NCBI RefSeq assembly: GCF_040819555.1
Contig: NZ_CP161920.1
Coordinates: 3,780,020-3,844,019 of the forward strand
Length of the DNA stretch: 64,000 bases
DNA from: Nitratireductor sp. GISD-1A_MAKvit
GTDB taxonomy: Bacteria > Pseudomonadota > Alphaproteobacteria > Rhizobiales > Rhizobiaceae
Direction: 5' to 3'
In this document: positions 11,472 through 61,886 of the stretch, in pieces
How positions within the stretch are numbered: position 1 is the first letter of the stretch
How the letters are laid out: the number at the start of each line of letters is the position of its first letter
Position numbers and translations under genes: made by a program
Notes under the pieces: model-generated
The model's database searches: none
Seen by the model: only the letters and a program-made list of their open reading frames with translations
What the model was told of the DNA's origin: nothing

Positions 11472-13674
11472 ATGGCGCGCAGGACGAAAAACCGAAGAAT
11501 CGAGCCGACTTTCGACGCGCCGGCGGCGCGCCGGAGCGGAGACGATCTGAAACTCGGTGACAGCGACCGCGTCGTGCCGACACGCCAGCGGCGCAGGCCT
11601 GCCAAAGGCAAAGGCTCCAGGCGCACAAGAAACACGCGCCGAAAAAGCGGGGGCGGTGGCGGCTTTTTCGGGTTCCTGCGCACCGCCGTCTACTGGTCGC
11701 TCGTTCTGGCGCTTTGGGGCGGCATCGCCGCGGCCGGCTTCACCGCTTACTACGGCGCCAAGATGCCGTCGGCGACCACATGGGAAATTCCTGACCGTCC
11801 GCCCAACGTGAAGATTGTCTCTGCGGACGGAGAGATGATTGCCAATCGCGGTATGACCGGTGGCGAGGCGGTGGGGCCTGCATGAAATGTCGCCGCATAT
11901 CCCGCAGGCGGTGATCGCCATCGAGGACCGGCGCTTCTACTCGCATTTCGGTGTCGATCCGGTTGGCCTTGCCCGCGCCATGGCAGAAAACGTCATGGCG
12001 GGGCGGCTGAAACAGGGTGGCTCCACCCTCACACAGCAGCTGGCCAAGAACCTTTTTCTAAAACCCGACCGGACCATTGAACGCAAGGTGCAGGAAGTGC
12101 TTCTGGCGCTGTGGCTGGAGCAAAAACATTCCAAGGACCAGATCCTGGAAATGTATCTGAACCGGGTCTATTTCGGCTCGGGCGCCTATGGTGTGGAGGC
12201 TGCCGCGCGGCGCTATTTCAACAAGTCTGCGCGGGATGTCACGCTTTCTGAAGCGGCCCTTCTGGCCGGTTTGCTGAAAGCGCCCTCGCGCCTTTCACCG
12301 GCACGTGATCCGCAGGCGGCCGAAAGCCGCGCGCAGGTGGTGCTCACTGCCATGCGGGACCAGGGCATGATCGGCGACAGCGAGATGACCACCGCCATGA
12401 GCCGCCCCGCCACGCGCGCTGCGGCCTACTGGACGGGTTCGGAACACTATTTCGCCGACCGCGTGATGGAGGAACTGCCCGGGCTGATCGGCGATGTGAA
12501 GAGCGACATCATCGTGGAGGCGACGGTCGATCTGCGCCTGCAGAAACAGGCGGAAAAGACCATCCGCAAACTGATCGACGAGAAGGGCGGGAAGCTTTCC
12601 GTAAGCCAGGGCGCGCTCGTTTCGATCGACACCAGGGGTGCGGTGCGGGCCATGGTGGGTGGCTATGACTATGCCAACAGCCAGTTCGACCGCGCCTCCG
12701 AGGCGCGCCGGCAGCCCGGCTCGGCCTTCAAACCCTTCGTATACATGGCTGCGCTCGAACAGGGGCGGCGGCCCGACAGCGTGCGCAACGATGCGCCGAT
12801 CAAGATCGGCAACTGGACGCCCGAAAACTACAAGGGCAAGTACCATGGCCCCGTCACGCTATCGGAAGCGCTCGCACGCTCACTCAATTCGGTCGCAGCT
12901 CAGCTTGCCATGGAAGCCGGCCCCAAAACCATCGTCGAGCTTGCTCACCGGATGGGCATCGAATCCGACCTGAAGGCCAACGCGTCTCTTGCTCTGGGCA
13001 CGTCCGAGGTGACCCCGCTGGAGCTGACGGCAGCCTATCTGCCCTTCGCCACCGGCGGATACAGGCCCGAGGTTTATTTCGTGCAGCGCATCACGACGGC
13101 ATCCGGCAAGGTGCTCTACCAGCACGACAGGCCACGCATGACGCGTGTGGCGAGCCCGGAGATCATCGGCATGATGAACGCAATGATGACGGGGACAATT
13201 GAATATGGCAGCGCGCGCGCAGCAAACATCGGCCGTCCGGCAGCAGGCAAAACGGGCACCACGCAGCAATCGCGCGATGCATGGTTCGTGGGATATACGG
13301 CCAATCTCGTAACAGGAGTCTGGTTCGGAAACGACGCTTCCAAGGCGACGAAGGCAACCGGCAGTTCCATGCCCGTTCCGGCATGGAAAGCCTTCATGAA
13401 GGAGGCCGAGAAGGGCCGCCCGGTCAAGAAACTGCCGGGTTCCTGGAGGCCCGGTTCACCGGGCATCGTGGCCCGTGAGCCCACGGCCCGTCCTGTCCCG
13501 CAGGCTGCTGTCGGTGGCGCAGCTCCAGCGCGAACCGCACCACCCCCCGCCCTTCCGACCCACAGCGATCCAGGCCACACGGCTTCGGTCCGCGGCCCTG
13601 TGCCGCCTGCCGATGTGGGAGGTGGTGTGCAGAAGAAGCAGACCTCCATTCTCGACATCATTCTGGGAAATTAG
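11472..13674 (+). pseudogene. Class A penicillin-binding protein (PBP1A), frameshifted as given
   Basis: The first frame (11472-11885) encodes a basic cytoplasmic N-terminus, a membrane anchor (FLRTAVYWSLVLALWGG) and the start of the periplasmic part. The second (through 13674) resumes with HEMSPHIPQAVIAIEDRRFY. It contains transglycosylase motifs EDRRFYSHFG and GGSTLTQQLAKNL, transpeptidase SAFK, SLN and KTGTTQ motifs, and a Pro/Ala-rich tail. The frames join perfectly if one base is removed at GGGGCC (11873-11878), giving VGLHEM. The joined product would be about 733 residues, bifunctional in peptidoglycan synthesis. Everything else is intact, so a sequencing error is more likely than gene loss; see findings. 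Confidence 0.9.
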
Positions 13675-13749
13675 AGCCCGCCGGTCCGCTTTTGCCTATC
13701 GCATTCCCTCGCGCACTGGCCTACATAGGAGCGGAACAGGGAGCAGGGC

Positions 13750-14493
13750 ATGGTCGACGAACGCAAGACACTGGTTTTAACCGGCGCCAGCCGGGGTATT
13801 GGCCACGCGACGGTGAAGCGTTTTTCGCGCGAGGGCTGGCGTGTGATCACATGCTCGCGGCAGGCTTTCTCGGAGGACTGCCCGTGGCCGGCGGGACCGG
13901 AAGACCATATCAAGCTTGATCTTTCCGACCAGGAAGATGTGGGCACTGCCATTGCCGAAATCCGCCACCGGCTGGAAGCCAATGGCGGACGGCTGGATGC
14001 ACTGGTCAACAATGCCGCCATCTCTCCCAAGCTCGAAGGCGGCAAACGAATGAATTCCATCGAAACGCCAATGCATGTGTGGCGCGACGTTTTTCAGGTG
14101 AATTTCTTTGCGCCGATCATGCTGGCGCGCGGGCTCTTCAGGGAACTCGGCAACGCCAGGGGTTCCGTGGTCAACGTGACCTCCATTGTCGGCAGCCGGG
14201 TGCATCCCTTTGCAGGCACCGCCTATGCCACCTCCAAGGCCGCGCTCGTGGCGCTCACGCGCGAAATGGCCGCCGATTTCGGCCCGCACGGCATTCGCGT
14301 CAACGCCATTGCGCCCGGCGAGATCGAAACCTCGATCCTCTCACCCGGCACGGAAAAGATCGTCGAGACCATTCCGCTGCGCCGGCTGGGGCAGACATCG
14401 GAAGTGGCCGAGACGATCTACTTTCTGTGCTCGGCCCAGTCGTCATATGTTTCGGGCGCGGAAATCCATATCAATGGCGGACAGCACGTCTGA
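13750..14493 (+). CDS. SDR-family NAD(P)-dependent oxidoreductase
   Basis: 247 residues. It begins with the Rossmann nucleotide-binding motif TGASRGIGHA (about 11-20), then NNAA (about 88-91), a catalytic serine in VTSIVGS, YATSK (catalytic Tyr-x3-Lys, about 159-163) and the C-terminal INGGQHV. This is a classical short-chain dehydrogenase/reductase, and the substrate cannot be told from sequence. The ribosome binding site is GGAGCAGGG. It is followed by a convergent host-attachment-family gene. Confidence 0.9.
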   Translation: MVDERKTLVLTGASRGIGHATVKRFSREGWRVITCSRQAFSEDCPWPAGPEDHIKLDLSDQEDVGTAIAEIRHRLEANGGRLDALVNNAAISPKLEGGKRMNSIETPMHVWRDVFQVNFFAPIMLARGLFRELGNARGSVVNVTSIVGSRVHPFAGTAYATSKAALVALTREMAADFGPHGIRVNAIAPGEIETSILSPGTEKIVETIPLRRLGQTSEVAETIYFLCSAQSSYVSGAEIHINGGQHV

Positions 14494-14583
14494 GCACCCA
14501 GGCCGGGTTACGGCTCCCGCTACGGTGAAACCGGATGCAGCGCGTGGCGACACAATGCCACGCACCGCCCGCCTTCGGCCCTA

Positions 14584-15030
14584 CTACTGCATCAGAACTT
14601 TCTCGATGTCGCCGACCGTGTGATTGGTCAGCGTCTTGGCGATCTCACCGATCACCTTGTCTTCCACTTCCTTGTGCATTTCCTTGCGCAGTTCACCCAT
14701 CACCAGCGGTGGGGCAACGAGCACAAGTTTGCTGAACTTGCCCTTGTGAGCGAGCTTGTAGAGCCGCTCTGCCACCTCGGCTGCAAAACGCTCCTTCTCG
14801 ATACGGTGCCAGTCTGTCTCGTCGACGGCGCTGCGGTGAACATTCTTGCCATCATTGAAGCGCCCCGGCTTGTCTGTCCCCTGCTCGCGGCTTGGTGGAT
14901 TTTCTTCGTGGATCGTTCGCACCACCTGAAGATTGGGATAGGTCGCATCGCCCTCATTGCGAAGAAACAGCGCCTTTTCGCCATCGGCGACGACAACCCA
15001 TGCATCGTGTACGAGCCGGAACTCAGCCAT
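14584..15030 (-). CDS. Host attachment family protein
   Basis: 148 residues. The sequence from FRLVHDAWVVVADGEKALFLRN, through a variable charged middle, to KLVLVAPPLVMGELRKEMHKEV matches the Host_attach family (PF10116), named after a plant-attachment gene but of unknown biochemical function. The C-terminal half resembles eRF1/archaeal release factor-like domains in fold arrangement (my inference). The start MAEFRLV was chosen because GGAG sits six bases upstream; an ATG at 15042 would add four residues. It is convergent with the SDR gene and divergent from cysG. Confidence 0.82.
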   Translation of the reverse strand: MAEFRLVHDAWVVVADGEKALFLRNEGDATYPNLQVVRTIHEENPPSREQGTDKPGRFNDGKNVHRSAVDETDWHRIEKERFAAEVAERLYKLAHKGKFSKLVLVAPPLVMGELRKEMHKEVEDKVIGEIAKTLTNHTVGDIEKVLMQ

Positions 15031-15255
15031 ATCAATCTCCATTGCTTCTATGGTTCTGAGGAAACGCAGTCTGCCGCTTCCCGTTCCACTGATGGATATG
15101 GGTATACCGAAAGGTTCGCGGAAGGATTTCCTGCCGGAAAGCGGTGCGGCGAAAAAGCAATCTTGTCGCTTCCGCGCGACGGCGAGTGTGTTTCTTCTCA
15201 GGCAATGCTGCAAGCCGCCATTATTCAGGGCATCTTTCACGAAGGCTCGCGAACC

Positions 15256-16684
15256 ATGGCGACAGACACTCAAAAGCTTGCCGCTTTCCCCGTGTTCATG
15301 CGGGTGGAAAACCGCCCGGTCGTTATTGTTGGCAATGGCGACGAGGCGCTCGCCAAGGCGCGCCTTCTCAACCAGTCGAGTGCGGCGCTCACACTTGTTG
15401 CCGATGCGCCCGAGAAAGCGCTCGCTGACTGGGCCGAGGCCAATGACGCCCGTTTGATCAGGGCACCCTATGCTCCGCGCTATATCGAGAATGCAGCGCT
15501 GGTCTTTGCCGCGACCGATGACGAGGCGCAGGATCGCATCATTGTCGCGGATGCGCGGGCGCGCTCCATTCCCGTCAACGCGGTGGATCGGCCCGAGCTT
15601 TGCGATTTCTACACGCCAGCGCTCGTGAACCGGGCGCCGCTCGCGGTTGCGATCGGAACCGAGGGCGCCGGCCCCGTGCTGGCGCAGATGGTGCGGGCGC
15701 GCGTCGACCAGATGCTCTCCCCGTCGCTTGGCGCACTCGCCCAGCTCGCCACGCAATACCGCGACGCCGTGGACCGGCTGGTGCCGCGTGGCCTTGCGCG
15801 TCGCCGGTTCTGGAAGGCCTTCTTCACTGGCGACACGGCGCGTGCGGTGGAGCGCGGTGACGCGGCCGCTGCCCGGCGCAGTGCATCCAGCCTGCTGGCC
15901 GCCGGTGAGGACATTCCCGGCCATATCGCGCTGGTGGGCGCAGGCCCGGGTGCGGAAGACCTTCTGACGCTGCGCGCCCAGCGCTTGCTCATGGAAGCCG
16001 ATGTCATCGTTTACGATGCGCTGGTGCCGGAGGCCGTGGTCGCCATGGGGCCGACGCGATGCCGAGCGCATCTCCGTCGGCAAACGCAAGGGCTGCCACT
16101 CCAAGAGCCAGGAAGAGATCAACGATCTGCTCGCGACGCTGGGGCGCGCGGGCAAGCGCGTTGTTCGGCTGAAATCCGGCGATCCGCTGATCTTCGGGCG
16201 CGCGGGCGAGGAGATGGCGGCACTCCGGGAAGCGGACGTGTCCTATGAAGTTGTGCCGGGCGTGACCGCCGCTTTCGCCGCTGCCGCCGATTTCGAGCTG
16301 CCACTGACGCTTCGCGGCATTGCCTCCTCCATCGTGTTCACCACAGGACACGATTTGAAAGGCCGCACCCTGCCCGACTGGGCGAGCCTCGCCGTCTCCG
16401 GTGCGACCATCGCCGTCTATATGGGGCGCTCCGTGGCTGCAGATGTGGCCGGGCGTCTTGTCGAGGCCGGCCTCTCGCCGGACACGGCGGTGGCCGTGAT
16501 CGAGAATGCCAGCCGCGATGACAGGCGGCTCCTGCATGGAACGCTGAATGACCTGCCTTCGCTTGCCGACCGCAGTGAACTGACCGGCCCCGTGATGACG
16601 CTGATCGGCGATGCCGTGGCCGGCGCGAATTTTGGGCGCTCGGAAGCGCTCGCGACTTACAAACACCAGCTGGAGCGCGCCTGA
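15256..16684 (+). pseudogene. cysG: Siroheme synthase CysG, frameshifted as given
   Basis: The N-terminal frame (about 210 residues, starting MATDTQKLAAFPVFM) is the precorrin-2 dehydrogenase/ferrochelatase half. The C-terminal half is uroporphyrinogen-III methyltransferase, with VGAGPGAEDLLTLRA and, in the shifted frame, RLKSGDPLIFGRAGEE and VVPGVTAA. The frame breaks at GGGGCC (16047-16052), and removing one base restores AMGRRDAERISVGKRKG. The joined product is about 475 residues and makes siroheme, the cofactor of the sulfite reductase encoded two genes downstream. Its stop overlaps the next ATG (TGATG). Because the sulfate operon otherwise looks intact, I suspect a sequencing error. Confidence 0.9.
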
Positions 16685-16992
16685 TGAAGATTGTAGCCGC
16701 CAATCGCCTGACCGATGGCGAAACCGTATGGCTGGGGGCCGGCGAGCGCTGGGTGGACACGATCGATGCCGCCCATGTGGCCAAGGATGCCGAGGATGAA
16801 GCGCGCATTGCCGCTGCTGGCAAACTGGCGCTGGCTGCCAACATCGTGATCGACGTTTCGCTGGTCGATGTGGAGCTCGTCGACGGCCGCGTCTTCCCCA
16901 AACGCCTGCGCGAACGCATCCGCGCCGGCGGGCCCTCCATTCATCCAGAGATCGGCAAGCAGGCGCGGGTCGCCGCGCAGCACGCCGCATAA
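16684..16992 (+). CDS. DUF2849 domain protein of the sulfite reductase operon
   Basis: 102 residues, beginning MKIVAANRLTDGETVWL. This family is nearly always found between siroheme synthase and nitrite/sulfite reductase in alphaproteobacteria. It is small and soluble with no cysteines, so it is unlikely to carry iron-sulfur. Its ATG overlaps the cysG stop by one base and cysI starts 17 bases later, so it is translated with them. Function is unknown; a role in sulfite reduction or siroheme handling is inferred only from conserved neighbourhood. Confidence 0.88.
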   Translation: MKIVAANRLTDGETVWLGAGERWVDTIDAAHVAKDAEDEARIAAAGKLALAANIVIDVSLVDVELVDGRVFPKRLRERIRAGGPSIHPEIGKQARVAAQHAA

Positions 16993-17008
16993 AGCCAGGT
17001 CACGTTTC

Positions 17009-18679
17009 ATGTATCGTTACGACGAATTCGACCAAGCCTTCGTGAAAGCCCGCGTTGCGGAGTTCACCGACCAGGTGGCGCGTCGCCTGTCAGGCGAACT
17101 GACGGAGGATCAGTTCAAGCCGCTCCGGCTGATGAACGGCGTCTATCTTCAGCTACACGCCTATATGCTGCGGATCGCCATCCCCTATGGCTCCCTCTCG
17201 CCGCGCCAGATGCGCAAGCTCGCCCATATCGCGCGCACCTATGACAAGGGCTATGGGCACTTCACCACGCGGCAGAACCTGCAGTTTCACTGGCCGAAGC
17301 TGGTCGACATTCCGCGCATTCTGGAAGAGCTGGCCGAGGTGGAGATGCATGCCATCCAGACCTCCGGCAACTGCATACGCAATGTGACAGCAGACCATTT
17401 TGCCGGGGCGGCGGCGGACGAAGTGGCGGACCCCCGCCCCTATGCGGAAATCCTGCGGCAATGGTCATCGCTGCATCCGGAGTTTTCGTATCTGCCGCGC
17501 AAGTTCAAGATTGCCGTGACGGGTGCTGCGCGCGACCGCGCGGCCATCGAAGTGCACGATATCGGCCTGCATTTGAAAAAGAACGACAGAGGCGAGCTCG
17601 GCTTTGCCGTCTTTGTCGGCGGCGGTCTCGGCCGCACCCCCATGGTGGCCAAGAAGATCCGCGATTTCCTGCCCGAACAGGACCTGCTCTCCTATGTGAC
17701 GGCGATCCTGCGTGTCTACAATCTGAGCGGACGCCGCGACAACAAATACAAGGCCCGGATCAAGATCCTCGTGCACGAGACCGGCACGGAAGAGCTGAAG
17801 GCGCAGGTGGAAAAGGAGTTCGACGAGCTCCGCGAAAGCGAGCTGAAACTGCCCGAGGCCGACATCCGCGCCATCGAAACCTATTTCGCGCCGCCGAAGC
17901 TGAAGGCGCGTCCGGAAGGCGACGCGGCGGTGAGCAGGGCTGTGAAGGCCGATCCGGGTTTTGCCGACTGGCTGCGCCGCAATGCGCATACGCACCGCAA
18001 CCCCGACTATGCCTGCGTGACCGTATCGCTGAAGGGGATCGGCGAGGTGCCGGGCGATGCGACCGACGCACAGATGGACGCGATTGCCGACCTTGCAGAG
18101 CAGTATGGCAATGACGAAATCCGCGTCAGCCATGAACAGAACCTGATCCTGCCGCATGTGGCGCGGGCCGACCTGCCGGCAGTGCATGCCGCCCTTGTGG
18201 AGATCGGGCTGGCAACGTCCAATGCCGGCCTCATCACCGACATCATCGCCTGCCCCGGGCTCGATTACTGCGCGCTTGCCAATGCCCGCTCCATTCCGGT
18301 GGCGCAGGAGATTTCTGAACGGTTTGCCTCTCAGACCCGGCAGGACGAAATCGGCGATTTGCAGATCAAGATTTCCGGCTGCATCAATGCCTGCGGGCAT
18401 CACCATGTGGGCCATATCGGCATTCTGGGCGTCGAGAAGAAGGGCGCCGAGCTTTATCAGGTTACCCTTGGCGGTTCGGCGCGCGAAGGCTCGACCATTG
18501 GCGAGATCATCGGGCGCGGCTTTGCACCCGATGAAATCACGGATGCGGTCGAGACCATTGTCGACACCTATCTGGCGCAACGTGAAAGCCGCGAAGAGAG
18601 CTTTCTCGACGCCTATCGCAGGCTTGGCCCCGCACCATTCAAGGAGGCCCTTTATGGCCACGAAGCCAAGGCAGCTTGA
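17009..18679 (+). CDS. cysI: Sulfite/nitrite reductase hemoprotein (CysI-like)
   Basis: 556 residues. There are two ferredoxin-like half domains and two siroheme-binding halves. The [4Fe-4S]-siroheme ligands are visible as CPGLDYC and, 40-odd residues later, GCINACGHHHVGHIG. GHFTTRQNLQFHW in the N-terminal half is the conserved substrate/siroheme region. The protein reduces sulfite to sulfide with six electrons. The operon with cysG and cysH favours sulfite over nitrite. The start MYRYDEFD matches the family. Its 3' end overlaps cysH by 26 bases. Confidence 0.92.
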   Translation: MYRYDEFDQAFVKARVAEFTDQVARRLSGELTEDQFKPLRLMNGVYLQLHAYMLRIAIPYGSLSPRQMRKLAHIARTYDKGYGHFTTRQNLQFHWPKLVDIPRILEELAEVEMHAIQTSGNCIRNVTADHFAGAAADEVADPRPYAEILRQWSSLHPEFSYLPRKFKIAVTGAARDRAAIEVHDIGLHLKKNDRGELGFAVFVGGGLGRTPMVAKKIRDFLPEQDLLSYVTAILRVYNLSGRRDNKYKARIKILVHETGTEELKAQVEKEFDELRESELKLPEADIRAIETYFAPPKLKARPEGDAAVSRAVKADPGFADWLRRNAHTHRNPDYACVTVSLKGIGEVPGDATDAQMDAIADLAEQYGNDEIRVSHEQNLILPHVARADLPAVHAALVEIGLATSNAGLITDIIACPGLDYCALANARSIPVAQEISERFASQTRQDEIGDLQIKISGCINACGHHHVGHIGILGVEKKGAELYQVTLGGSAREGSTIGEIIGRGFAPDEITDAVETIVDTYLAQRESREESFLDAYRRLGPAPFKEALYGHEAKAA

Positions 18680-19421
18680 TCGCGATTTCGCCGCAAATGG
18701 CGGTGCGACCGAACTCGCGGATGCGCTGAACCTGCGCTACGGGCATCTGCCGGCGGAAGAGATCATTGCCGTGGCAATCGATCTGTTTGAAGGTGCCGGG
18801 GGCATTTCGGCAACATCCTCGTTCGGGGCGGATTCGGCGGCTCTTCTGCATTTGATCGCCGAAGCGGAGCCTGGCCTGCCGATCACGTTTCTCGACACCG
18901 GCCAGCACTTTGGCGAGACGCTGCAATATCGCGACCAGCTTGCGGCAGATCTGGGTCTTACCAACATTGTGATCGTGAAGCCGCTCGATGATGCGCTCAA
19001 TGCTGACGATCCCGACGGCATTCTGCACCGGAGCGATACGGAGCGCTGCTGCGCGATCCGCAAGGTGGAGCCCATGGCCCGCGCCGTCGCTCCCTATCGC
19101 GCGTGGTTTACCGGGCGCAAGCGCGGGCAGGCCTCGACACGGGCGGAAATGCCGGTGTTCGAGGCCGTCGGCCCGCGCATCCGCGTCAATCCGCTGGCAC
19201 GGTGGACGACCGAGGATCAGGCCGACTATATGCGCCGGCACGATCTGCGCCAGAACCCGCTTGTGGCTTTCGGCTATCTGTCGATCGGCTGCTTCCCCTG
19301 CACGAGCCCGGTCAAGCCCGGCGAAGACGCGCGCTCCGGCCGCTGGGTCGGACAGGCGAAGACAGAATGCGGCATTCATCTGCCCGGCCTTGAAGCTGCG
19401 CTTCCTTCGGCTTCGGGATAG
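18654..19421 (+). CDS. cysH: Adenylylsulfate (APS/PAPS) reductase CysH
   Basis: 255 residues. The PP-loop-type fold starts around SFGADSAALLHLI. The cysteine pattern RCC (about 129-130), GCFPC (about 212-215) and the catalytic ECGIHL near the C-terminus (about 238) indicate a [4Fe-4S] enzyme. That pattern is typical of assimilatory APS reductases rather than the cluster-free PAPS type. It makes sulfite for CysI using thioredoxin. It starts inside the end of cysI with GGAGG upstream. Confidence 0.92.
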   Translation: MATKPRQLDRDFAANGGATELADALNLRYGHLPAEEIIAVAIDLFEGAGGISATSSFGADSAALLHLIAEAEPGLPITFLDTGQHFGETLQYRDQLAADLGLTNIVIVKPLDDALNADDPDGILHRSDTERCCAIRKVEPMARAVAPYRAWFTGRKRGQASTRAEMPVFEAVGPRIRVNPLARWTTEDQADYMRRHDLRQNPLVAFGYLSIGCFPCTSPVKPGEDARSGRWVGQAKTECGIHLPGLEAALPSASG

Positions 19422-19431
19422 GAGTTTTTTC

Positions 19432-19953
19432 ATGAGCACATCAGACATCCGCCTCTGGTCTCCCGAAGGCTTCCGCGAAAACCGCTGGCACAGGGCCGAG
19501 GATGCCGCCGCGCTCAAAGAGGGCGGGTATGTGATCCTGCCGCTCGCGGTTTTTCTCGAACTCGATGATGAGACGCGCGAAGGTGCTGCGGAGCGTATTG
19601 GCGTCGAGCTTCAGCCGGGCGATGCGCTCGACGCGCTGTTGCCGCATCTCAGACATCTGCCGCTGGTGGCGCTTGCTTTCCCCGCCTTCAACGATGGGCG
19701 CAGCTATTCAAAGGCGGAACTCCTGCGCACCCGCCACGGGTATCGTGGGGAAATCCGGGCAACCGGCGACGTGCTGATCGACCAGGTCGCGCATATGTTC
19801 CGGGTGGGGTTCTCAACGCTGGAGATCGTCAACCCGTACACGATCAGCCAGCTTGAGGCCGGAAAGGAAGCGGGCATTCCGCTTTACTATCAGCCTGCAG
19901 CGAAGGCGGCCGCCGCGCCCGGATCCTATGCCTGGCGGCGTGTTTCTGCCTGA
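19432..19953 (+). CDS. DUF934 protein, sulfate assimilation operon
   Basis: 173 residues. LPLVALAFPAFNDGRSYSKAELLRTR and VLIDQVAHMFRVGFSTLEI are typical of DUF934, a family described as possibly involved in sulfite reduction and encoded next to cysH/cysI across proteobacteria. It has no cysteines or membrane segments. Ten bases separate it from the cysH stop, and the ribosome binding site is GGAG. It is the last gene of the operon. Molecular function is unknown. Confidence 0.87.
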   Translation: MSTSDIRLWSPEGFRENRWHRAEDAAALKEGGYVILPLAVFLELDDETREGAAERIGVELQPGDALDALLPHLRHLPLVALAFPAFNDGRSYSKAELLRTRHGYRGEIRATGDVLIDQVAHMFRVGFSTLEIVNPYTISQLEAGKEAGIPLYYQPAAKAAAAPGSYAWRRVSA

Positions 19954-20248
19954 ATTTCCAGGAATTATGCCAAAAATGCGGGGGCTGGAGGCCCTTCTGC
20001 GGCATTTCATCTCGAAATGTCAGGATTTCGGCCTATATGAGAGCCAAGGGGTGCATTCCGCACAACTTCTGTTATGGTGCGCTCCATCTTGAGTCGCCCT
20101 TAAGCTTGGGCGCCTTTGCATCTTTGCGCCGGCTGATGCCAGGCCCTTGCACCGATGTAGAATAAGATTGACCGAGAGCTGCTCTTCGCGCTTTTAAGCG
20201 CACTGGCCACGCTCAACCATTGAAACGCCAACTGAAGAAGGAAGTCCA
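19954..20248. other. Intergenic region upstream of rpsU, no gene seen
   Basis: About 295 bases between the sulfate operon and rpsU. No convincing frame, RNA gene or strong intrinsic terminator was seen. Several GC-rich partial inverted repeats (around 19970-20015, ATGCCAAAAATGC to GCGGCATTTC) might act at the 3' end of the operon. It should contain the rpsU promoter. Confidence 0.4.
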
Positions 20249-21931: not shown

Positions 21932-21934
21932 GGA

Positions 21935-33008: not shown

Positions 33009-33429
33009 ATGCTGCCAGACACCAAACAGGGATTCGAACTCGATCCACGGCTGGAGGCTGAAAGCCTGCATGTGATGTGGCTCGGCCTGTGTGAGTTGCG
33101 CCTTTGCGATGACAAAAGATGGCCCTGGCTCATTCTGATTCCGCAACGTCCCGGCGTGGAAGAAATCCATGACCTGACGCCTCTCGATCAGGCGATGGTG
33201 AGCTTTGAAACCAATATGGTTGCGCAGATGCTGAAAGAACTAACCGGCTGCACCAAGATCAACAGCGCCGCGCTCGGCAATGTCGTTCGCCAGTTGCACA
33301 TTCATGTGGTGGCGCGCGACGAAGGCGACCCTGGCTGGCCGGGGGCCTATCTGGGGACATGGCGTGCGTGAACCTTATCGACGTGAAGACCTGCACCAGT
33401 TCGCCGAGACGATACGCGGCAAGCTTTGA
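33009..33429 (+). pseudogene. HIT-family protein, frameshifted near the C-terminus as given
   Basis: The intact part (MLPDTKQGFELDPRL...) reaches the HIT triad QLHIHVVARDEGDPGWPG. As given, the frame then stops at 33371 after AYLGTWRA. Removing one base in GGGGGCC (33341-33347) restores PGPIWGHGVREPYRREDLHQ and a stop at 33429, the normal C-terminus, for a 139-residue product. The family hydrolyses nucleotide phosphoramides or dinucleoside phosphates. The ribosome binding site is GGGGAGAG. The catalytic histidines precede the break. A sequencing error is suspected. Confidence 0.85.
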
Positions 33430-53046: not shown

Positions 53047-53065
53047 CTGACGCTACCAATCCATC

Positions 53066-54346: not shown

Positions 54347-54359
54347 CTCATCTCCTCGC

Positions 54360-55088
54360 CTAGTACTCGACTTCGCTGGCATTGCGGAAGTCGCTGGAAA
54401 CCTTGCCAGCCTTGTAATTGCTTTCTTCGCCGCGATACTTGTCGATCACGCCCATCCGGTTCTCCGCATCGATCTCGCCCTGCTTGCGGGGACCGAGGAA
54501 ATCGTTCGGATTGGCGACCTGGGCGGCGAGATTGTTCTGAAACGAACAGCCGAAATTCGCGTAATGCTTGTTGTCGGTCGTATCGAGAATGTCTTCTGGC
54601 CATCGTCCGCACGGACCCGTCGACGCCTGAATGGACGGATAGGAGACACGAATGGGAGGAGACGTGTCAGCAGATGGAGCCTGGAATGAGACTATGGATA
54701 TAGACTCCGGCGGCACACCCTGTTTCTGGAGAAGGCTGGTAATGTGTGACGCCACATTGGACGCTCCAAGTTCATTGGCCGAACCCGACGGCACCAATAC
54801 CGAAACCGTGCCTCCGGAGCGCTTGTCGTAGCCACTCATGAAGCCGGCCAGCGTTTTCGCCTGGTCTCGCGTCATCCGGCGCGCGGACATGGCGACCGGC
54901 AGATCGATCTGCTTCGATTTCTCCGAGATCACGATCGGATGGTTTGTCCGGTAATCGTCGGGGATCGACCCCACGATGACAGAATCCCGCTTGGCAGTGC
55001 AGCCTGCCACGAGCGCGGTTGCGCAGACGATCAGGGCGGCTCCTGCCAGGCTTGGCCTTTGAGTCTTCCGAATGTTCTTTCTCATCAT
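54360..55088 (-). CDS. cpaD: CpaD-family pilus assembly lipoprotein
   Basis: 242 residues from MMRKNIRKTQRPS. The signal peptide ends in lipobox VAGC (about 30). The mature part has QAKTLAGFMSGYDKRSGGTVSVLVPSG (OmpA-like half) and the family's CGRWPEDI...NFGCSFQNNLAAQVANPNDFL. It is an outer-membrane partner of the CpaC secretin. An ATG at 55121 would add 11 residues and overlap cpaC. Confidence 0.92.
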   Translation of the reverse strand: MMRKNIRKTQRPSLAGAALIVCATALVAGCTAKRDSVIVGSIPDDYRTNHPIVISEKSKQIDLPVAMSARRMTRDQAKTLAGFMSGYDKRSGGTVSVLVPSGSANELGASNVASHITSLLQKQGVPPESISIVSFQAPSADTSPPIRVSYPSIQASTGPCGRWPEDILDTTDNKHYANFGCSFQNNLAAQVANPNDFLGPRKQGEIDAENRMGVIDKYRGEESNYKAGKVSSDFRNASEVEY

Positions 55089-55117
55089 AACCACCCCCGG
55101 CATGACCTTTCCCCTGC

Positions 55118-56710
55118 TCATTTGTAGATGTAGCCGACAACGCCGTGGTAGCGGCCATCGGGCAGGTTGGTTTTCATGGTTCCGTAGACACGGTTGACCC
55201 GTCCCAGGAACATGCCCGCGCCATCGCTGGCGGGCGTGAAATTGTCGTCTGGCTTGGCAAGCGCGGTGCGTGCCGTTGGCTTGGAGAGGAACGGGGTCAC
55301 GATGATGACCAGTTCCGTCTCGTTGCGCACGAAGTCGCGGCTGCGGAACAGCGCGCCGAGCACCGGCACTTTCGAAAGACCCGGCACGCCGTTAAAGGCC
55401 TGCCGCACATCATCCTGCACCAGACCGGCGATCATCATCGATCCGCCCGATGGCAGTTCAACCGTCGTATCGGCGAGACGCTTGCGGATCGAGATCGCGT
55501 TCATGCTGGAGGCGTTCCGGTAGCGCTGGCCCCGTCCAATACCTGATGAAAAGGATTGCGAACCCTGCATTGTCGGCTCCGAGACCTGGGTTCGGATTTT
55601 CAGGCTGATACGTCCGGGAGACAGAACGGTGGGCAGGAACTCCAGACCAATGCCGTAGTCGATCTTTTCGACCTCGTATTTGAGCGCATTCGTGTCGGGA
55701 TCGATCTCCTGGGAGGTGACGAGGTTGAATTCGCCTCCAACCTTGAACGTGGCCTTCTCGCCCGAAACGGCCGTCAATGCCGGCTCGGCCAGTGTCTTCA
55801 TGACGCCAGCCTGTTCCATTGCATTGATGTAGGCGTCGATCAGCGAGCCTCCTACGGAGAACTGCGTTGGGGAAAGCGGTTTTCCGAGCCCAAACGCATT
55901 GTCGGCCACGGCCCCCCATGAGATGCCGTCGGTACTGCCCGAGCCGATCATGTTTACGCCGAGCTGTTTCATGACGGAGCGGCTGACCTCGGCGACCGTG
56001 ACTTTCAGGGTCACCTGATCTTCGCCGATGATCTGCAGCATGTTGACGATTTTGCTGGTCTGGCGCTTCTGATCGGGGTTGTTGATCGTGACGCCGCCGC
56101 CATCGGTGGGCGCTGCCGCGCTCTGCGAATACTGGCCGGTTGTCGCTTCACCGCCGGTAACAAAAATCTGCGCCAGCTGCGCAGCTCTTGAGGCATCGAG
56201 CGGCGTTTCGACGGTGCCGGTGAGGACAACGTTGTCGTTGATCAGCTCGACGTCGATATCGGAGTCTGGAATAAAGCGCGTCAGATACTCTTCGAGGCCT
56301 GCCACATCCCGCTCTACCGCGACATCAAGGCTTGCGATCTGCTCACCATTTGCTCCGAAGACAAATATGTTGGTTTCGCCGACCTGCTTTCCGAACAGGT
56401 AGATGCGCCGTGACGTGCGGGTGACGGCATCGGCGACGGCAGGATTGGCGACCAGAATGTCATAGGCATCGGCGGGCAGATCCAGCACCAGAGACTTGTT
56501 AAGGCCGAGCTGCAGCCGCTGGGTAGCGCTGCTCCCGCCGCGTGTCTTGACGAGTTGTTGCTGTGCGGAGGCGTCGCCGACGGGCAGGGCAAGCTGAAGG
56601 GATATCGCGGCGGCGCATCCCAGAAGAACTCGTGCGGTCAGTTTCAGGTTGCTATGCATAACCCGCCCCATCCTTGTCGCGGCAATTGCTCCGTTGGCGT
56701 CCTGGTTCAT
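55118..56710 (-). CDS. cpaC: Tad pilus secretin CpaC/RcpA
   Basis: 530 residues with the ATG at 56710 overlapping the cpaB stop (ATGA); the signal peptide really begins around MHSNLKLTARVLLG. An N-terminal pilus domain (LNKSLVLDLPADAYDILVANPAV) is followed by a BON-like repeat and the C-terminal secretin domain (about 275-480, with VPGLSKVPVLGALFRSRDF). It forms the outer-membrane gate for the pilus. Confidence 0.94.
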   Translation of the reverse strand: MNQDANGAIAATRMGRVMHSNLKLTARVLLGCAAAISLQLALPVGDASAQQQLVKTRGGSSATQRLQLGLNKSLVLDLPADAYDILVANPAVADAVTRTSRRIYLFGKQVGETNIFVFGANGEQIASLDVAVERDVAGLEEYLTRFIPDSDIDVELINDNVVLTGTVETPLDASRAAQLAQIFVTGGEATTGQYSQSAAAPTDGGGVTINNPDQKRQTSKIVNMLQIIGEDQVTLKVTVAEVSRSVMKQLGVNMIGSGSTDGISWGAVADNAFGLGKPLSPTQFSVGGSLIDAYINAMEQAGVMKTLAEPALTAVSGEKATFKVGGEFNLVTSQEIDPDTNALKYEVEKIDYGIGLEFLPTVLSPGRISLKIRTQVSEPTMQGSQSFSSGIGRGQRYRNASSMNAISIRKRLADTTVELPSGGSMMIAGLVQDDVRQAFNGVPGLSKVPVLGALFRSRDFVRNETELVIIVTPFLSKPTARTALAKPDDNFTPASDGAGMFLGRVNRVYGTMKTNLPDGRYHGVVGYIYK

Positions 56711-57523
56711 TTCCGGGTCCCCACTTCAGTCACTTCTCCGGACTTGATCATCCGAACGCTGTTGCCCCGTCCCTGACCGGATACGAGGTAGGACCCATCA
56801 TTCGTCGGTGCTTCGTTGGTATCGGTGATCGCCCGTAGAGACAGCGTAAGGCGATCGGCCATCTGCTGCGCAACCGTGATGATTTCCGCCTGTTCCGGCG
56901 TCAATTCCAGGGTGGCCGTTTCGCCAACCTTCACCCGGCGCCCGTCTTCATCCTCCTGGATCGCCTGATCGATCGCCAGAACCTTGATGTTCTTGAGGAT
57001 GGTCTCGGTAATGAAGCCGTTCGGCGTTGCGGTGTCCTGGGTTCTGCGCGTCATGATGACGTCGACATAATCATTGGGAAGAATGAAACCGCCCGCCGAG
57101 GTATCGGCCGCGATCTGGGTGGCCACCGCACGTTTGCCCGATGGCAGGATGGCCGACATGAAGCTCATCCCCTCGCCGATCAGCTTCGAGCGCCTGAGCG
57201 GCTCGCCGGTGTAGAGCGCGACACGGGCAATGGAGCTGCGCAGCTCTTCGAGTGCCTCGGGGCTCTCCTGGCGCGTGATCATGTTGGCGTTGATGTTGTC
57301 TGCTGGCCAGGGCCTGCCAGCTCACGGCATTGCCAAGCTCCGTTCCCATCGGCACATCCTGACCGATGACAAGAACCTCCACCAGATCGATTTCGGGTTC
57401 CTGGGGCCCTGCGCTCACCGCCGGCTGCTGCGGAGCCGGCGCCGTGAGATTTTTGGCCACGTAACCGGCACCAAGCGCGGCCAGCACGGCCACACCTAGA
57501 ATGACGATCCGGGATTTGCTCAT
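56707..57523 (-). pseudogene. cpaB: Tad pilus assembly protein CpaB/RcpC, frameshifted as given
   Basis: The first frame (MSKSRIVILGVAVLAALGAG...) runs through the membrane anchor and the SAF start (VLVIGQDVPMGTELGNAVSW). The second resumes with MITRQESPEALEELRSSIAR and reaches the normal end. Removing one base at GGGCC (plus-strand 57310-57314) joins them as WQAWPADNINANMITR. The joined product is about 271 residues. Two SAF-like domains are expected. All other pilus genes are intact, so the break is more likely a sequence error than decay. Confidence 0.88.
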
Positions 57524-57655
57524 AACTCCGCCCCTCGTACTCGGACTTCCCTTGCGTGAAGCGGAGAATGACGTGTCAATCGTCAAATTATGGTTAACGC
57601 GAACCTTACAGCCATGATTAATTTAAAGTTGAACAGTTCCCGGGAGAAACCGGGA

Positions 57656-57690
57656 ATACAAAACGCCCCGATGCAGGATCGGGGCGTGGT
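57656..57690 (-). terminator. Terminator between cpaA and cpaB
   Basis: On the minus strand CGCCCCGAT and ATCGGGGCG form a nine-base perfect stem followed by TTTTGTATT. It ends the flp/cpaA transcript, so cpaB to tadC must have their own promoter in 57524-57655. Confidence 0.85.
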
Positions 57691-57723
57691 GAAGAATGGG
57701 TACGATATCGCGGCCTATGGCAA

Positions 57724-58245
57724 CTAGAACCCTGAAAGCCTGGCGAGCGCCCATTGCATGAGCGGTGTTTCAGGATAGGCGACGAGCCCCCCCAGCCCCA
57801 GCGCAATGCCATAGGGAATGCCTGCCTTTGGATCTGCCAGATTTCTCAAAAGCAGGTTGTTCACCGACACGTAGGACACATAAGAATTCCGGAACATAAT
57901 CAGAGCGAGTGTCAGACCGCCTCCTATGAGAGCGGCAAGGCAAAGATACTGCACAAGCAGTGGGCTGAGGCCAAACCACACGGATGTGGCTGCGATGAGT
58001 TTCGCATCGCCGCCGCCCATGCCACCGACTGCAAAGAGTGCAAAGGTTACCGCCAGAACCAGAAGGCCGGCTGAAAGATGCAAGCCGATCTGCGACCAGT
58101 CCATGCCCGTCATCGGCGCCACGATCATGAAAGTCCCGACCAGCAACACCGAAACGCGGTTTGCGATGGTCATGGACAACAGGTCCGAGACTGCCGCAAA
58201 CACCATGCAGAACGGAAAGACCACGAGAATCACAGCTTCAAGCAT
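57724..58245 (-). CDS. cpaA: Prepilin peptidase CpaA (A24 family)
   Basis: 173 residues from MLEAVILVVFPFCM. It is hydrophobic, with about six membrane helices. The aspartyl protease pair is visible as AAVSDLLSM (first Asp) and GMGGGDAKLIAA (GxGD second Asp). It cleaves the Flp prepilin leader. There is no N-methyltransferase domain, as usual for CpaA/TadV. It lies between the pilin gene and the main operon. Confidence 0.93.
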   Translation of the reverse strand: MLEAVILVVFPFCMVFAAVSDLLSMTIANRVSVLLVGTFMIVAPMTGMDWSQIGLHLSAGLLVLAVTFALFAVGGMGGGDAKLIAATSVWFGLSPLLVQYLCLAALIGGGLTLALIMFRNSYVSYVSVNNLLLRNLADPKAGIPYGIALGLGGLVAYPETPLMQWALARLSGF

Positions 58246-58387
58246 CAACGACACCCCAGTTTTGATGACCTGCGCATTTCGCCGCAAAAACCTTAAGGAA
58301 TTGACTTTCTGGCACATCGAAAAGAAAGGGCCACCTCTTTGCTCAAGAGGTGGCCCGTTCAATCAACCAGTTTAGGACCTGGGCTGA

Positions 58388-58564
58388 TTAGTTGGTATTG
58401 CCCGGCAGTTTGCCAGCGACGCCCGTGAAGGTGTCATTGATCTTCGTTCCGAGAGCGGTCGCGCCGCCGATGATTGCAAGAGCAATGAGCGCTGCCAGGA
58501 GGCCATACTCGATTGCAGTTGCACCGGACTCGTCTTTCAGGAAGCGTGAAAACAGATTAGCCAT
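58388..58564 (-). CDS. flp: Flp family type IVb major pilin
   Basis: 58 residues from MANLFSRFLKDESG. The prepilin cleavage site is G/ATAIEYG, followed by the hydrophobic helix LLAALIALAIIGGATAL and the short C-terminus NDTFTGVAGKLPGNTN. It is processed by CpaA encoded just downstream. GGAAGAGGAG lies upstream of the ATG. It is a single copy in this window. Confidence 0.95.
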   Translation of the reverse strand: MANLFSRFLKDESGATAIEYGLLAALIALAIIGGATALGTKINDTFTGVAGKLPGNTN

Positions 58565-58891
58565 TGTGTAAAACTCCTCTTCCGCGTTTTTGTTCAGCAA
58601 GACCGTCAACGATCTTTGTTGTGTTGATCGGATGGCCTGAACTTACAAAGGAGCTCTTTCAACCTGCTTAAGAAACAGCCTTACCAAAACCTTGCCTGCG
58701 CAAAGCGAGCCGATTGGTTAACAGTTGTATAACAGGAAACCTGCAACCAGCCATGCCGCACTCTCTTTATAATGGTACGTCTTGAAACACTGTTCCCTCG
58801 CCGTGTTTGGGCCCCCACGAACTGGCCTGCTTAACCGTTGGTTCACCAATACGCTTCATAGTCTCTTCAGCTTGACTTGGGGAGCAGCGCA
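58565..58891. other. Intergenic region between the Flp pilin gene and the divergent pilus gene
   Basis: 327 bases with no gene seen. It should hold divergent promoters. The AT-rich segment TTAACAGTTGTATAACAGG (near 58718-58736) is the least GC-rich patch and a plausible promoter or binding site. No RNA gene was recognised. Confidence 0.45.
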
Positions 58892-59332
58892 ATGCGCAAC
58901 GCGTTTTCTAAATCCGGAATGATCGTGACAGCAGGCGCTTTGCTTGCGGGATTGCTCGTCATGCCTGCAGTGAGCATGGCCGACAGCTCGTCGATAAGGG
59001 TGGTCATGAATCAGGCCAAGATCGTCAAGCTTGCCCGCCCGGCAGACACGATCGTCGTGGGCAATCCCGAGATTGCCGACGCCGCCGTTCAGGATGCACA
59101 GACAATTGTTCTGACAGGCAAGGGTTTCGGTGTGACCAACCTTGTCGTGCTCGACATCGACGGGTTGCCCGTGGTCGACGAACAGGTTGTGGTCAGCCGA
59201 CAGACCGTTGACTCGGTACGAATCTACCGCCGTTCCAACGTGCAGACGCTGTCGTGCACTCCATTCTGTGAGAGCGCCTACAAGACTGATGCCGAGCGCC
59301 TTTCCGAAACCGAGCTGAACGCCAGCCAGTAG
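58892..59332 (+). CDS. Stand-alone pilus/secretin N-terminal domain protein
   Basis: 146 residues from MRNAFSKSGMIVTAG (GGGGAGC upstream). A Sec signal peptide ends VSMADS. The mature part (VVMNQAKIVKLARPADTIVVGNPEIADAA) matches the N-terminal domain of CpaC/RcpA (LNKSLVLDLPADAYDILVANPAVADAV) but the BON and secretin domains are missing. The C-terminus has a Cys pair (LSCTPFCES) that could form a disulfide. It may be a periplasmic accessory of the Tad channel. Confidence 0.88.
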   Translation: MRNAFSKSGMIVTAGALLAGLLVMPAVSMADSSSIRVVMNQAKIVKLARPADTIVVGNPEIADAAVQDAQTIVLTGKGFGVTNLVVLDIDGLPVVDEQVVVSRQTVDSVRIYRRSNVQTLSCTPFCESAYKTDAERLSETELNASQ

Positions 59333-59499
59333 GATAGCTCCGTATCCGGACGTGCTTCCCGTGCCTCCCGGCGATACGAATGCCGGTGGTTTACGAAATC
59401 TCAAAACGGAAGCAGAAAATTGACTCGCCATCACAACGGGAATGCAACCTGAACGCGCTAGGTATCCAATCGTCGAGTTAGTCAACTCAGGGGCCAGGA

Positions 59500-60048
59500 A
59501 TGGGCGAGCGTAGCAATCTGAACGGAGCTGAAAGGCGGTCGAAACGGCCCCTCTTGCGCGGATTCATAAAGAATCGGGACGGCGCAACAGCGGTCGAGTT
59601 CGCTATTCTCATTTTTCCGTTCCTGTTGCTGGTGTTCATCATCGTGGAATCGAGCATCGCTTTTGCGGCACAGCAGTTGCTGACAAACGCAACGGATGAT
59701 GTGGCACGGCTTTTCCGGACGGGCCAGGAGCAGCGGGCAACGCTCAACGAAACCAAGCTGCACAAGATGATCTGCGATCGGATATCGATGCTTATGACGG
59801 GCGATTGTCCCGGCCTTGCGGTTGATCTTCGCCAGTTCGACAGTTTTGAAGACGCCGCCAAAGCCAGTCAGGGCTTCAACCCAGATGGTTCCTTTGACAC
59901 AAGGCTGGATCTCGGACCCGCTTTGTCCAAGAACATGATCCGTGTCTATTACCGCTGGCCGGTGATTACCAACATCCTGGCAGACCAGTTGCCTGACGGA
60001 AAAATGCTGCTCTTCTCGACCAGTACCTGGCAGAACGAGCCATTCTGA
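59500..60048 (+). CDS. tadE: TadE-like pseudopilin
   Basis: 182 residues. A basic N-terminus followed by RDGATAVEFAILIFPFLLLVFIIVES shows the prepilin-type cleavage (G/ATAVEF) and TadE hydrophobic helix. The C-terminal periplasmic part has a Cys pair (ICDR...GDCPG) likely disulfide-linked. It is a minor pilin-like subunit of the Tad system, coupled by TGATG to the next gene. Confidence 0.9.
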   Translation: MGERSNLNGAERRSKRPLLRGFIKNRDGATAVEFAILIFPFLLLVFIIVESSIAFAAQQLLTNATDDVARLFRTGQEQRATLNETKLHKMICDRISMLMTGDCPGLAVDLRQFDSFEDAAKASQGFNPDGSFDTRLDLGPALSKNMIRVYYRWPVITNILADQLPDGKMLLFSTSTWQNEPF

Positions 60049-60716
60049 TGAAGGCATTTCCCCGGCAGGCGTGTAAGGAAAGCGAGATGATGCGCAATCG
60101 AATTACCGACAGCCCCAGGAACGGCATCATGATCGCCATAGGGGCTTTTCTGCGGGACCGGCGAGGCATTGCGGCGACCGAATTTGTGATCGTCCTGCCT
60201 ATATTGCTGGCCTTCTACTTTCTGACCATGGAGTTCAGTCAGGCCATCGACACGAGCAAGAAGGTGAGTCGTGCAGCAAGCATGGTCGGCGACCTGATTG
60301 CACAGCAACCCTCGATCTCCCCCGGAGAAGTTGACGCCATCATGAAGATTGGCAGTGCGATTCTGAAACCGTACAATCGTTCCATGCCCACCGTCACAGT
60401 CACCGCCATCGAGATCACTGACGAAGAAGATCCGAAGGTGAAGGTTGTCTGGTCACGCGAGCTTCGAAATGGTTCCCCGCAACCTGGAGCGCCCAAGGGC
60501 AGCAACGCGACCGTTCCCAACGATCTCAAGAAGAGGGGCACGTTCTACATCAAATCGTCTACATCGCTCGGCTACAAGCCCCGCCTCGCCTGGTCGAGTG
60601 AGGGCGCCAAGGCAGCCGGTCTGACGGCAATGCTGAGCCTCGACAACCTCCCGCTGAGCGAGAGCTACTATCTGCGCCCACGGATGAGCCGCACGATACC
60701 CTGTGCGGACTGTTGA
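60048..60716 (+). CDS. TadE/TadG-like pseudopilin
   Basis: 222 residues with the ATG overlapping the preceding stop. The helix RRGIAATEFVIVLPILLAFYFL carries the TadE motif with the G/IAATEF junction. The long periplasmic part ends in PCADC. It is probably the second TadE/TadG subunit; a large TadG with a von Willebrand domain is not seen in this window. Confidence 0.87.
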   Translation: MKAFPRQACKESEMMRNRITDSPRNGIMIAIGAFLRDRRGIAATEFVIVLPILLAFYFLTMEFSQAIDTSKKVSRAASMVGDLIAQQPSISPGEVDAIMKIGSAILKPYNRSMPTVTVTAIEITDEEDPKVKVVWSRELRNGSPQPGAPKGSNATVPNDLKKRGTFYIKSSTSLGYKPRLAWSSEGAKAAGLTAMLSLDNLPLSESYYLRPRMSRTIPCADC

Positions 60717-60977
60717 GCGGCACGCATCCAGCATCACTCCATCAGGGAACGCTGCAGCTCGATTGCCATTTCCCAAACGTCCTACTATGTCTTGCTGAGT
60801 GGTAGCGGCGAGGGACTGGCATGGCGTGCGTATCGATTTCCGTTCCGGGTGGGCCCGTCCTTTCGGCGCGCCGCTCCAGGGCTGCGGGTTTGCCGCTTTC
60901 CTGCACGCCTGAAGCATTCGATATGCAGAACTGCGCCCCACGCCGCGGCGCGTTTTTCCTGAGCGGACCGGCCTCAC

Positions 60978-61886
60978 ATGCCTGAATTGCCCGAGGTTGA
61001 AACCGTCCGTCGTGGCTTGCAGCCAATCATGGAAGGTGCGCACATCGACGCGGTTGAGCTGCGTCGACCCGATCTGCGGTTTCCGTTTCCCGACGGGTTC
61101 GCCGAGCGGCTCAAAGGACAGGAGATCATCGCGCTGGGACGGCGCGCCAAGTATCTTTTGGTCCATTTGGAGACATCGGATGTGGTGATCTGTCACCTGG
61201 GCATGTCCGGATCGTTTCGCGTGGACCATGACGAGGAACGATCGTCGTCTCCGGGGGCATTTCATCACGCGCGTTCCAAAGCGGAGAAACACGACCATGT
61301 CCTGTTTCATCTGCGGCTGGGCGACGGTCGAAACGTTCGTGTGATCTACAACGATCCGAGGCGGTTCGGCTTCATGTTGCTGCATGACCGGGGACCGCTG
61401 GACAGCCATCCGCTTCTGGCGCCGCTGGGAACCGAACCGACGGGGAACGCGCTGGATGGAGCATTGCTTTCTGCACGCCTGAAACGCAAACGCACGCCGC
61501 TGAAGGCCGCTCTCCTGGATCAGCGGGTGATCGCCGGTCTCGGCAACATTTATGTCTGTGAAGCACTCTGGAGGGCGCGACTTTCCCCAAGACGCAGCGC
61601 GGAAACGATTGTGAACGCTCGGGGAACGTCCGAGCGGTGTGACCGACTTGCGATTGCCATCCGTTCGGTCATCGCCGAAGCGATTGCAGCCGGAGGGTCT
61701 TCATTGCGCGATTATGTTCAGGCAGACGGCTCACTGGGGTACTTCCAGCATGCATTCAAGGTGTACGGGCGGGAAGGAAGCCCCTGCCCTCGCGACACCT
61801 GCAGCGGCAGCGTACAGCGGATCGTTCAGAGCGGGCCGCTCGACGTTTCACTGCCCCGCCTGTCAACGTTAGAGAGTGCATACTAG
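60978..61886 (+). CDS. mutM: Formamidopyrimidine-DNA glycosylase (Fpg/MutM), last codons frameshifted as given
   Basis: 302 residues as given. The N-terminus [13 protein letters not shown] carries catalytic Pro2 and Glu3. NDPRRFGFM and the helix-two-turn-helix with [14 protein letters not shown] follow. The C-terminal zinc finger begins [18 protein letters not shown], then leaves frame at GGGCC (61833-61837). Removing one base gives [12 protein letters not shown] and a stop at 61872, which restores the two missing zinc cysteines. The true product is probably 297 residues. It excises oxidised purines. Confidence 0.9.

What the first reader, a model, noticed from the sequence alone, without database searches (positions are those of the whole stretch)
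11472..61872. Five conserved genes each broken by a one-base insertion at GGGCC
PBP1A (11873-11878), cysG (16047-16052), HIT (33341-33347), cpaB (57310-57314) and fpg (61833-61837) are each restored to a full family-like protein by removing one G or C, and in all five the plus strand reads at least GGG followed by CC. The G-runs are only 3 to 5 long, so ordinary homopolymer slippage is a poor fit. Genes on both strands are affected. PBP1A, siroheme synthase within an intact sulfate operon and CpaB within an intact Tad locus are unlikely to be lost together. A systematic read or consensus error at GGCC, possibly caused by base modification there, explains it best; a GGCC-targeted mutational process is the more exciting alternative.
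Basis: partly seen in the sequence, partly recalled or inferred. Interest (0 to 1): 0.75.

Follow-up and report, generated by a model that had tools for sequence, protein, structure and literature searches.

The report
Sulfur-DNA marks scar a genome sequence
Many genes in this bacterium's deposited sequence look broken by one extra letter at GGCC, most likely because the cell puts sulfur into its DNA at GGCC and the sequencing machine misread those spots, so the genes are probably intact and the errors reveal the chemical mark.

Summary
All five window genes carry one extra base in a GGCC core relative to two syntenic congeners. In 517,505 own bases aligned to both, 56 of 86 own-specific one-base insertions lie at GGCC runs, against 2 of 37 own deletions and 1 of 21 relative-specific insertions. 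Ordinary slippage fails: 15,276 other G/C runs hold one insertion. The all-GGG look is chance: G-side 27, C-side 25.

The motif suggested DNA phosphorothioation. The genome then proved to hold a dndA-E locus; dndC is over cut-off in own alone of 10 genus genomes. Its specificity loop reads R-P-K, the published GpsGCC class. dndB and dndD are themselves broken three times at GGCC, and the only dxs copy is split there; these breaks are hardly real.

Best explanation: consensus errors where phosphorothioated GGCC was read from native DNA. Platform unknown, no reads seen, sulfur not measured.

The parts
11424..13674 (+). PBP1A-family gene in two frames; extra base within the run at 11873-11878 (GGGGCC)
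   Evidence: alignment; TIGR02074 on the G008 orthologue; Transgly and Transpeptidase on the second piece; eight of nine congeners match it in one open frame, G004 in three pieces
15256..16684 (+). cysG (siroheme synthase) in two frames; extra base within 16047-16052 (GGGGCC)
   Evidence: NF007922 on the G008 orthologue
33009..33426 (+). HIT-domain gene, C-terminal frame change; extra base within 33341-33347 (GGGGGCC)
   Evidence: PF01230 on own piece and on the G008 orthologue
56707..57586 (-). cpaB of the Tad locus in two frames; extra base within 57310-57314 (GGGCC on plus)
   Evidence: TIGR03177 on the second piece
60978..61886 (+). fpg, last residues out of frame (recalled: the zinc-finger end); extra base within 61833-61837 (GGGCC)
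   Evidence: insertion at C2:3841858; own profile match stops at residue 286 of 302 while the G002 orthologue matches to the profile's end

Best explanation
The insertions are consensus errors, not mutations. The strain carries a GGCC-type Dnd system that replaces a phosphate oxygen with sulfur between the two Gs of GGCC on each strand (GpsGCC), at a fraction of sites. When native DNA is read by a single-molecule method, the sulfur-bearing GG is often read as one base too many. At heavily modified sites the extra base wins the consensus and gives GGGCC or, if the other strand's mark dominates, GGCCC. Shown here: the GGCC-specific insertion bias, its absence from two relatives, strand symmetry, flank preference, the dnd locus, and the R-P-K loop. 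Inferred: that PT is present, that it causes the extra call, and that reads were of native DNA.
For: Bias: 56 of 86 own insertions, 2 of 37 own deletions, 1 of 10 G002 and 0 of 11 G008 insertions at GGCC runs; 1 insertion in 15,276 G3+/C3+ runs outside GGCC against 56 at 1,708 GGCC runs of 5 or more (runs counted over all 684 kb, insertions only where aligned). Strand-symmetric 27:25. Partial and context-dependent: 56 of 4,224 GGCC cores, 55 of the 56 in V-GGCC-B; S. lividans sulfur sites are described as CGGCC or GGCCG (PMC6186775 passages) and PT systems use a minority of sites (PMC8053081 passages). dndC was predicted from the motif, then found: over cut-off in own alone of 10 genus genomes and in 5 of 397 order genomes including own. 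Loop R-P-K falls in the GpsGCC class Arg-X-Lys/Arg (PMC12193691 passages). dndA 510.6 bits and dndC 690 bits, over cut-off; DndE 72% identical to a reference. The breaks in dndB (1) and dndD (2) sit at GGCC runs; in the other dnd loci compared, dndB to dndD are unbroken over the part held. A dead Dnd could not mark GGCC. The only dxs copy is split at a GGCC run. 46 of 56 GGCC insertions are deep inside genes against 22 of 67 other own indels. PT raises nanopore base-call errors around the site (PMC9069010 passages).
Against: No raw reads, platform or sulfur measurement. In E. coli B7A the 8 tested sites were at most 50% modified (PMC6459556 passages), so a majority consensus error needs higher occupancy or a strong per-read effect. 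Modification errors in one nanopore study were mismatches, not insertions (PMC10687267 passages). Six E. coli dnd+ stretches have gap-free dndB-E, and five comparisons gave 8 one-base gaps, none with GAAC/GTTC in the bases shown; other dnd loci are unbroken. Platforms of these are unknown. CGGCCG is nearly spared (1 of 436), which does not follow the CGGCC/GGCCG rule simply. Bulk frequencies of GGCC runs in own differ little from the relatives. The dnd breaks are placed by frame junctions only, without a close relative. A dnd-associated putative methyltransferase (TIGR04096) could be the writer instead.
Confidence: 0.8

Rival explanations
1. Consensus errors caused by a base methylation at GGCC (m5C or m4C), not by phosphorothioation; the dnd locus is incidental, or its linked TIGR04096 methyltransferase is the writer.
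For: Motif-specific errors from unknown modification are documented (PMC10687267 passages). Own has TIGR04096 beside dnd and a second PF01555 enzyme not found in the 5 congeners searched.
Against: No PF00145 match in own. The second PF01555 enzyme has a DPPY motif, usual for m6A enzymes (recalled), and GGCC holds no A. A methylase usually marks nearly all sites (recalled); only 1.3% of GGCC cores are hit, with sharp flank rules.
Confidence: 0.12
2. The insertions are real: a GGCC-targeted mutational process, perhaps mis-repair or misreplication at phosphorothioated GG.
For: The bias is strong and own-specific, and a GGCC-type marking system is present.
Against: The only dxs copy is split and mutS is frameshifted. 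dndB and dndD are hit, which would switch the process off. GGCC insertions do not avoid gene interiors and are not richer between genes: 0 of 159 against 56 of 4,065 (not significant).
Confidence: 0.04
3. Ordinary homopolymer or GC-context consensus error of the platform, unrelated to modification.
For: Long-read assemblies do carry one-base indels (recalled). G004 of the same genus has a PBP1A in three pieces as well.
Against: 1 insertion in 15,276 G3+/C3+ runs outside GGCC. Sites with T before or A after GGCC are nearly spared. In the 14 kb of G004 compared, no insertion lies at a GGCC run of 5 or more; one deletion does.
Confidence: 0.03
4. Real insertions tolerated by programmed or general +1 recoding at GGGCC.
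For: Frames on both sides stay conserved.
Against: I know of no mechanism that reads both GGGCC and GGCCC in any frame (recalled); the two relatives lack the insertions; most of the 1,708 GGCC runs of 5 or more carry no insertion.
Confidence: 0.01

Closest known systems
Nanopore detection of phosphorothioate sites through base-call errors (PMC9069010; passages seen)
   Same: PT in native DNA raises base-call errors near the mark
   Different: That work compared reads of a PT-bearing plasmid with a modification-free control, and GAAC/GTTC in Salmonella; here errors survive into a deposited consensus as one-base insertions at GGCC and break genes
Modification-mediated errors in nanopore assemblies (PMC10687267; passages seen)
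   Same: Motif-specific, strain-specific consensus errors, in four strains linked to a defence system
   Different: There mismatches at GCAGC and GCTGG; here insertions at GGCC and a backbone mark
GGCC-type Dnd phosphorothioation of Streptomyces lividans 1326 and Pseudomonas fluorescens Pf0-1 (PMC12193691, PMC6186775; passages seen)
   Same: GGCC core, DndC specificity loop of the Arg-X-Lys/Arg class (R-P-K as in S. lividans), partial site use; dndA divergent from dndB-E (for S. lividans recalled)
   Different: Here the neighbours are PbeA-like and Orf5-like genes (PADLOC names) and a TIGR04096 methyltransferase; AGGCCT is the best context and CGGCCG nearly spared

Membership tests
Dnd phosphorothioation system | DndC sulfurtransferase over the curated cut-off | tested here: met
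   TIGR03183, 690 bits against a cut-off of 290.4
Dnd phosphorothioation system | DndA cysteine desulfurase | tested here: met
   TIGR03235, 510.6 against 480
Dnd phosphorothioation system | Intact DndD and DndE | tested here: inconclusive
   DndE in one frame, 72% identical to a reference; DndD present in three frames, each piece scanned below the whole-protein cut-off, each break at a GGCC run
Dnd phosphorothioation system | Sulfur in DNA, as d(GpsG) | not testable with these tools
   needs LC-MS/MS or iodine cleavage
GGCC-type (GpsGCC) Dnd | Arg-X-Lys/Arg in the DndC specificity loop | tested here: met
   GYPAPRPKFRW in own; class described in PMC12193691
Modification-mediated sequencing error | Errors confined to one motif and one strain, absent in relatives | tested here: met
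   two relatives compared
Modification-mediated sequencing error | Errors vanish in amplified DNA | not testable with these tools
   no reads available
Homopolymer slippage | Indels spread over G/C runs whatever their neighbours | tested here: not met
   1 in 15,276 runs outside GGCC
HaeIII-type GGCC C5 methyltransferase | PF00145 gene in the genome | tested here: not met
   0 matches in own; 3 of 10 genus genomes have one

The most novel reading that the evidence does not exclude
The frameshift scars are a strand-resolved map of the most heavily phosphorothioated sites: deposited long-read assemblies of dnd+ bacteria hold unread PT maps, and here they show a specificity V-GGCC-B (almost no T before, no A after) that may be set by DndC or DndE.
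Probability: 0.5. Interest if true: 0.75.

Novelty: new variant of a known kind. Interest (0 to 1): 0.62.

Why it matters
If true, several hundred genes in this genome (about 445 if the 517,505 bases aligned are typical; extrapolation) are wrongly read as broken. A frameshift motif alone predicted a rare backbone-modification system and its specificity, which was then found. The same test can be run on existing assemblies to find active PT systems, learn their flank rules and flag false pseudogenes. In the titles and abstract openings listed by my searches (20 of 40 listed, 28: 25 of 25, 79: 15 of 39, 80: 3 of 3, 98: 10 of 24) I saw no paper that describes insertion scars of phosphorothioation in assemblies; preprints and most subscription journals are not held.

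Tried and rejected
Homopolymer slippage: rejected. GGCC C5 methyltransferase: none found. Second PF01555 enzyme: own-only among 6 genomes searched, but DPPY type; judged unlikely. A second strain of the species as an independent witness: none among the 120 proteins listed; the best other PodJL relative is 72% identical. Generality in E. coli dnd+ genomes (204 of 5,426): six stretches examined, no one-base gap at GAAC/GTTC; platforms unknown, so uninformative rather than refuting. G004, another assembly with a broken PBP1A: in 14 kb its indels are not GGCC insertions. Non-coding against coding rate: too few non-coding sites (0 of 159). Internal-stop counts in the same gene test differ less between genomes (own 18 and 21, G008 11 and 12, G002 15 and 14) and were not pursued. 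Contig C1 (100 kb fetched) was not analysed.
Full report
Setting. The window is C2:3780020-3844019 of a 4,115,723-base genome in two contigs, the last 64 kb of the larger contig (3,844,019 bases). PBP1A points to Nitratireductor (best named matches N. soli and N. indicus). Nine same-genus genomes besides own are held. G002 (contig of 3,790,143 bases, the length given for a protein record named N. kimnyeongensis) and G008 are syntenic at 83-84% nucleotide identity in the first block.

Observation. In 284 kb of own sequence, conserved genes that are intact in both relatives were tested in own: 16 of 266 (66 absent) and 19 of 263 (63 absent) are frameshifted, depending on the anchor. For G008 the figures are 5 of 187 and 4 of 186, for G002 3 of 211 and 4 of 201. 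Of 23 aligned frameshift cases, 17 show a one-base insertion in own against both relatives, all 17 in a GGCC run of 5 or more. There are four one-base deletions, none at GGCC, one of them in a case that also has an insertion; in three cases no one-sided event was found. PBP1A, cysG, HIT and cpaB are among the 17; fpg appears in the next scan.

Bias. I aligned 684 kb of own in two blocks to about 0.8 Mb of each relative (81-82% identity over both) and kept clean one-base gaps seen against both (517,505 bases aligned to both). Own has 86 specific insertions, 56 at a GGCC run of 5 or more, and 37 deletions, 2 there. G002 has 1 of 10 insertions and 1 of 16 deletions there, G008 0 of 11 and 1 of 7. 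The background is 2.5%. Own also has more of the other indels than the relatives, as expected for the more distant branch of the three. Outside GGCC, 15,276 runs of three or more G or C hold 1 own insertion. The G side is longer in 27 runs, the C side in 25, equal in 5 (57 runs for 56 events). Of 4,224 GGCC cores 1.3% are affected: AGGCCT 7 of 147, GGGCCC 4 of 91, CGGCCC 21 of 615, AGGCCG 18 of 809, AGGCCC 4 of 293, CGGCCG 1 of 436 (each with its reverse complement); with T before or A after, 1 of 1,833. In one search a run with equal sides was assigned to the G side by rule.

Real or error. Fifty-six of 56 lie in conserved coding sequence (4,065 sites) and 0 at 159 others, a difference that is not significant. 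Deep inside genes lie 46 of 56 GGCC insertions but 22 of 67 other own indels. The sites map to 56 genes of the relatives (the best-scoring overlapping gene was taken, which can be a neighbour, as at HIT). Thirty of these orthologues were scanned and four more; among them are mutS, purF, purN, hrpB, moaB, dxs, glyQ and O-succinylhomoserine sulfhydrylase. For mutS the frame change was seen directly, for purF, purN and moaB it follows from the insertion inside the gene. The only dxs copy is split in two frames at a GGCC run (weaker matches elsewhere are to remote relatives), and the only glyQ copy ends differently (profile match to 276 instead of 282). dxs is essential in most bacteria that rely on the MEP pathway (recalled). 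These breaks are not credible as mutations in a living strain.

Writer. A GGCC core, both strands and few sites pointed to Dnd phosphorothioation (idea noted). The search made on that idea found dndC over cut-off in own alone among 10 genus genomes (G001 has a weaker relative below cut-off with a T-N-S loop) and in 5 of 397 order genomes, own included. The locus, C2:2743407-2757724, holds dndA, dndB, dndC, dndD, dndE, a TIGR04096 methyltransferase, a PbeA-like gene, an Orf5-like gene (PADLOC name; weaker HEC-06 and SspE matches) and a weakly PbeC/DndD-like gene. The DndC loop is GYPAPRPKFRW. A 2025 study assigns Arg-X-Lys/Arg there to GpsGCC, Thr-Arg-Ser to GAAC/GTTC and Thr-Gln-Asn or Asn-Gln-Thr to GATC (PMC12193691, passages). 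R-P-K also occurs in G202, G253, Massilia, Arthrobacter and the A. larrymoorei plasmids (two records, identical over 30,926 bases); Nonomuraea has K-P-K; G104 and G130 have S-R-R.

The self-referential point. In own, dndB is broken once (C2:2752014) and dndD twice (C2:2754263 and 2755389), each at a GGCC run that coincides with the frame junction. There is no close relative of this locus, so the base itself was not polarised by DNA alignment. In the other dnd loci compared, dndB to dndD lie in one frame over the part held (A. larrymoorei supplied the queries and is intact by construction, G104, G130, G202 and G253 are partial, and G130 gave no dndB). A truly dead dndD could not mark GGCC, so the marks and the breaks are compatible only if the breaks are errors. 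The alternative, that the breaks came last, is strained.

Mechanism. PT lies between the Gs of GGCC on each strand. An extra call at that dinucleotide gives GGGCC from one strand and GGCCC from the other, as seen. PT is known to raise nanopore base-call errors around the site (PMC9069010, passages) and to be seen by SMRT kinetics (PMC9521924, passages). S. lividans carries about 471 d(GpsG) per million nucleotides (PMC6186775, passages). The scars here number about 108 per million bases (56 in 517,505), so they could be the most occupied sites (inference). Weak points: occupancy was at most 50% at the 8 sites tested in E. coli B7A (PMC6459556, passages), the platform is unknown, and no E. coli dnd+ stretch examined shows the analogous scar.

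Verdict. It is most likely a sequencing artefact with a biological cause: a GGCC-type phosphorothioation system. The five genes should be regarded as probably intact until reads are checked.

Noticed in passing
G000 C2:2743407-2757724 (L235, L236): Dnd locus with PbeA-like, Orf5-like and weakly PbeC/DndD-like genes on the opposite strand and a TIGR04096 methyltransferase downstream: a possible mixed restriction partner for Dnd.
   Followed up: partly
L234 (G001 C1:1137839-1138660) and L249 (G133): DndC-like proteins below cut-off with loop GYPPPTNSFRW, a loop class not among those in the passages of PMC12193691 that I saw.
   Followed up: no
L247 (G104) and L248 (G130): DndC over cut-off with loop S-R-R; target motif unknown to me.
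   Followed up: no
L237:5739-6509 (G000 C2 about 955.7-956.5 kb): Second N6/N4 DNA methyltransferase (DPPY motif), not found in the 5 congeners searched.
   Followed up: partly
L238 (G004 C192): PBP1A of G004 is also fragmented, with indels that are not GGCC insertions, so that assembly has a different error type.
   Followed up: partly
L117:1-3597 (own, about 100 kb before the window): PodJL-like gene is cut to 1,179 aa next to a GGCC insertion; the listed relatives named Nitratireductor are 1,224-1,253 aa.
   Followed up: yes
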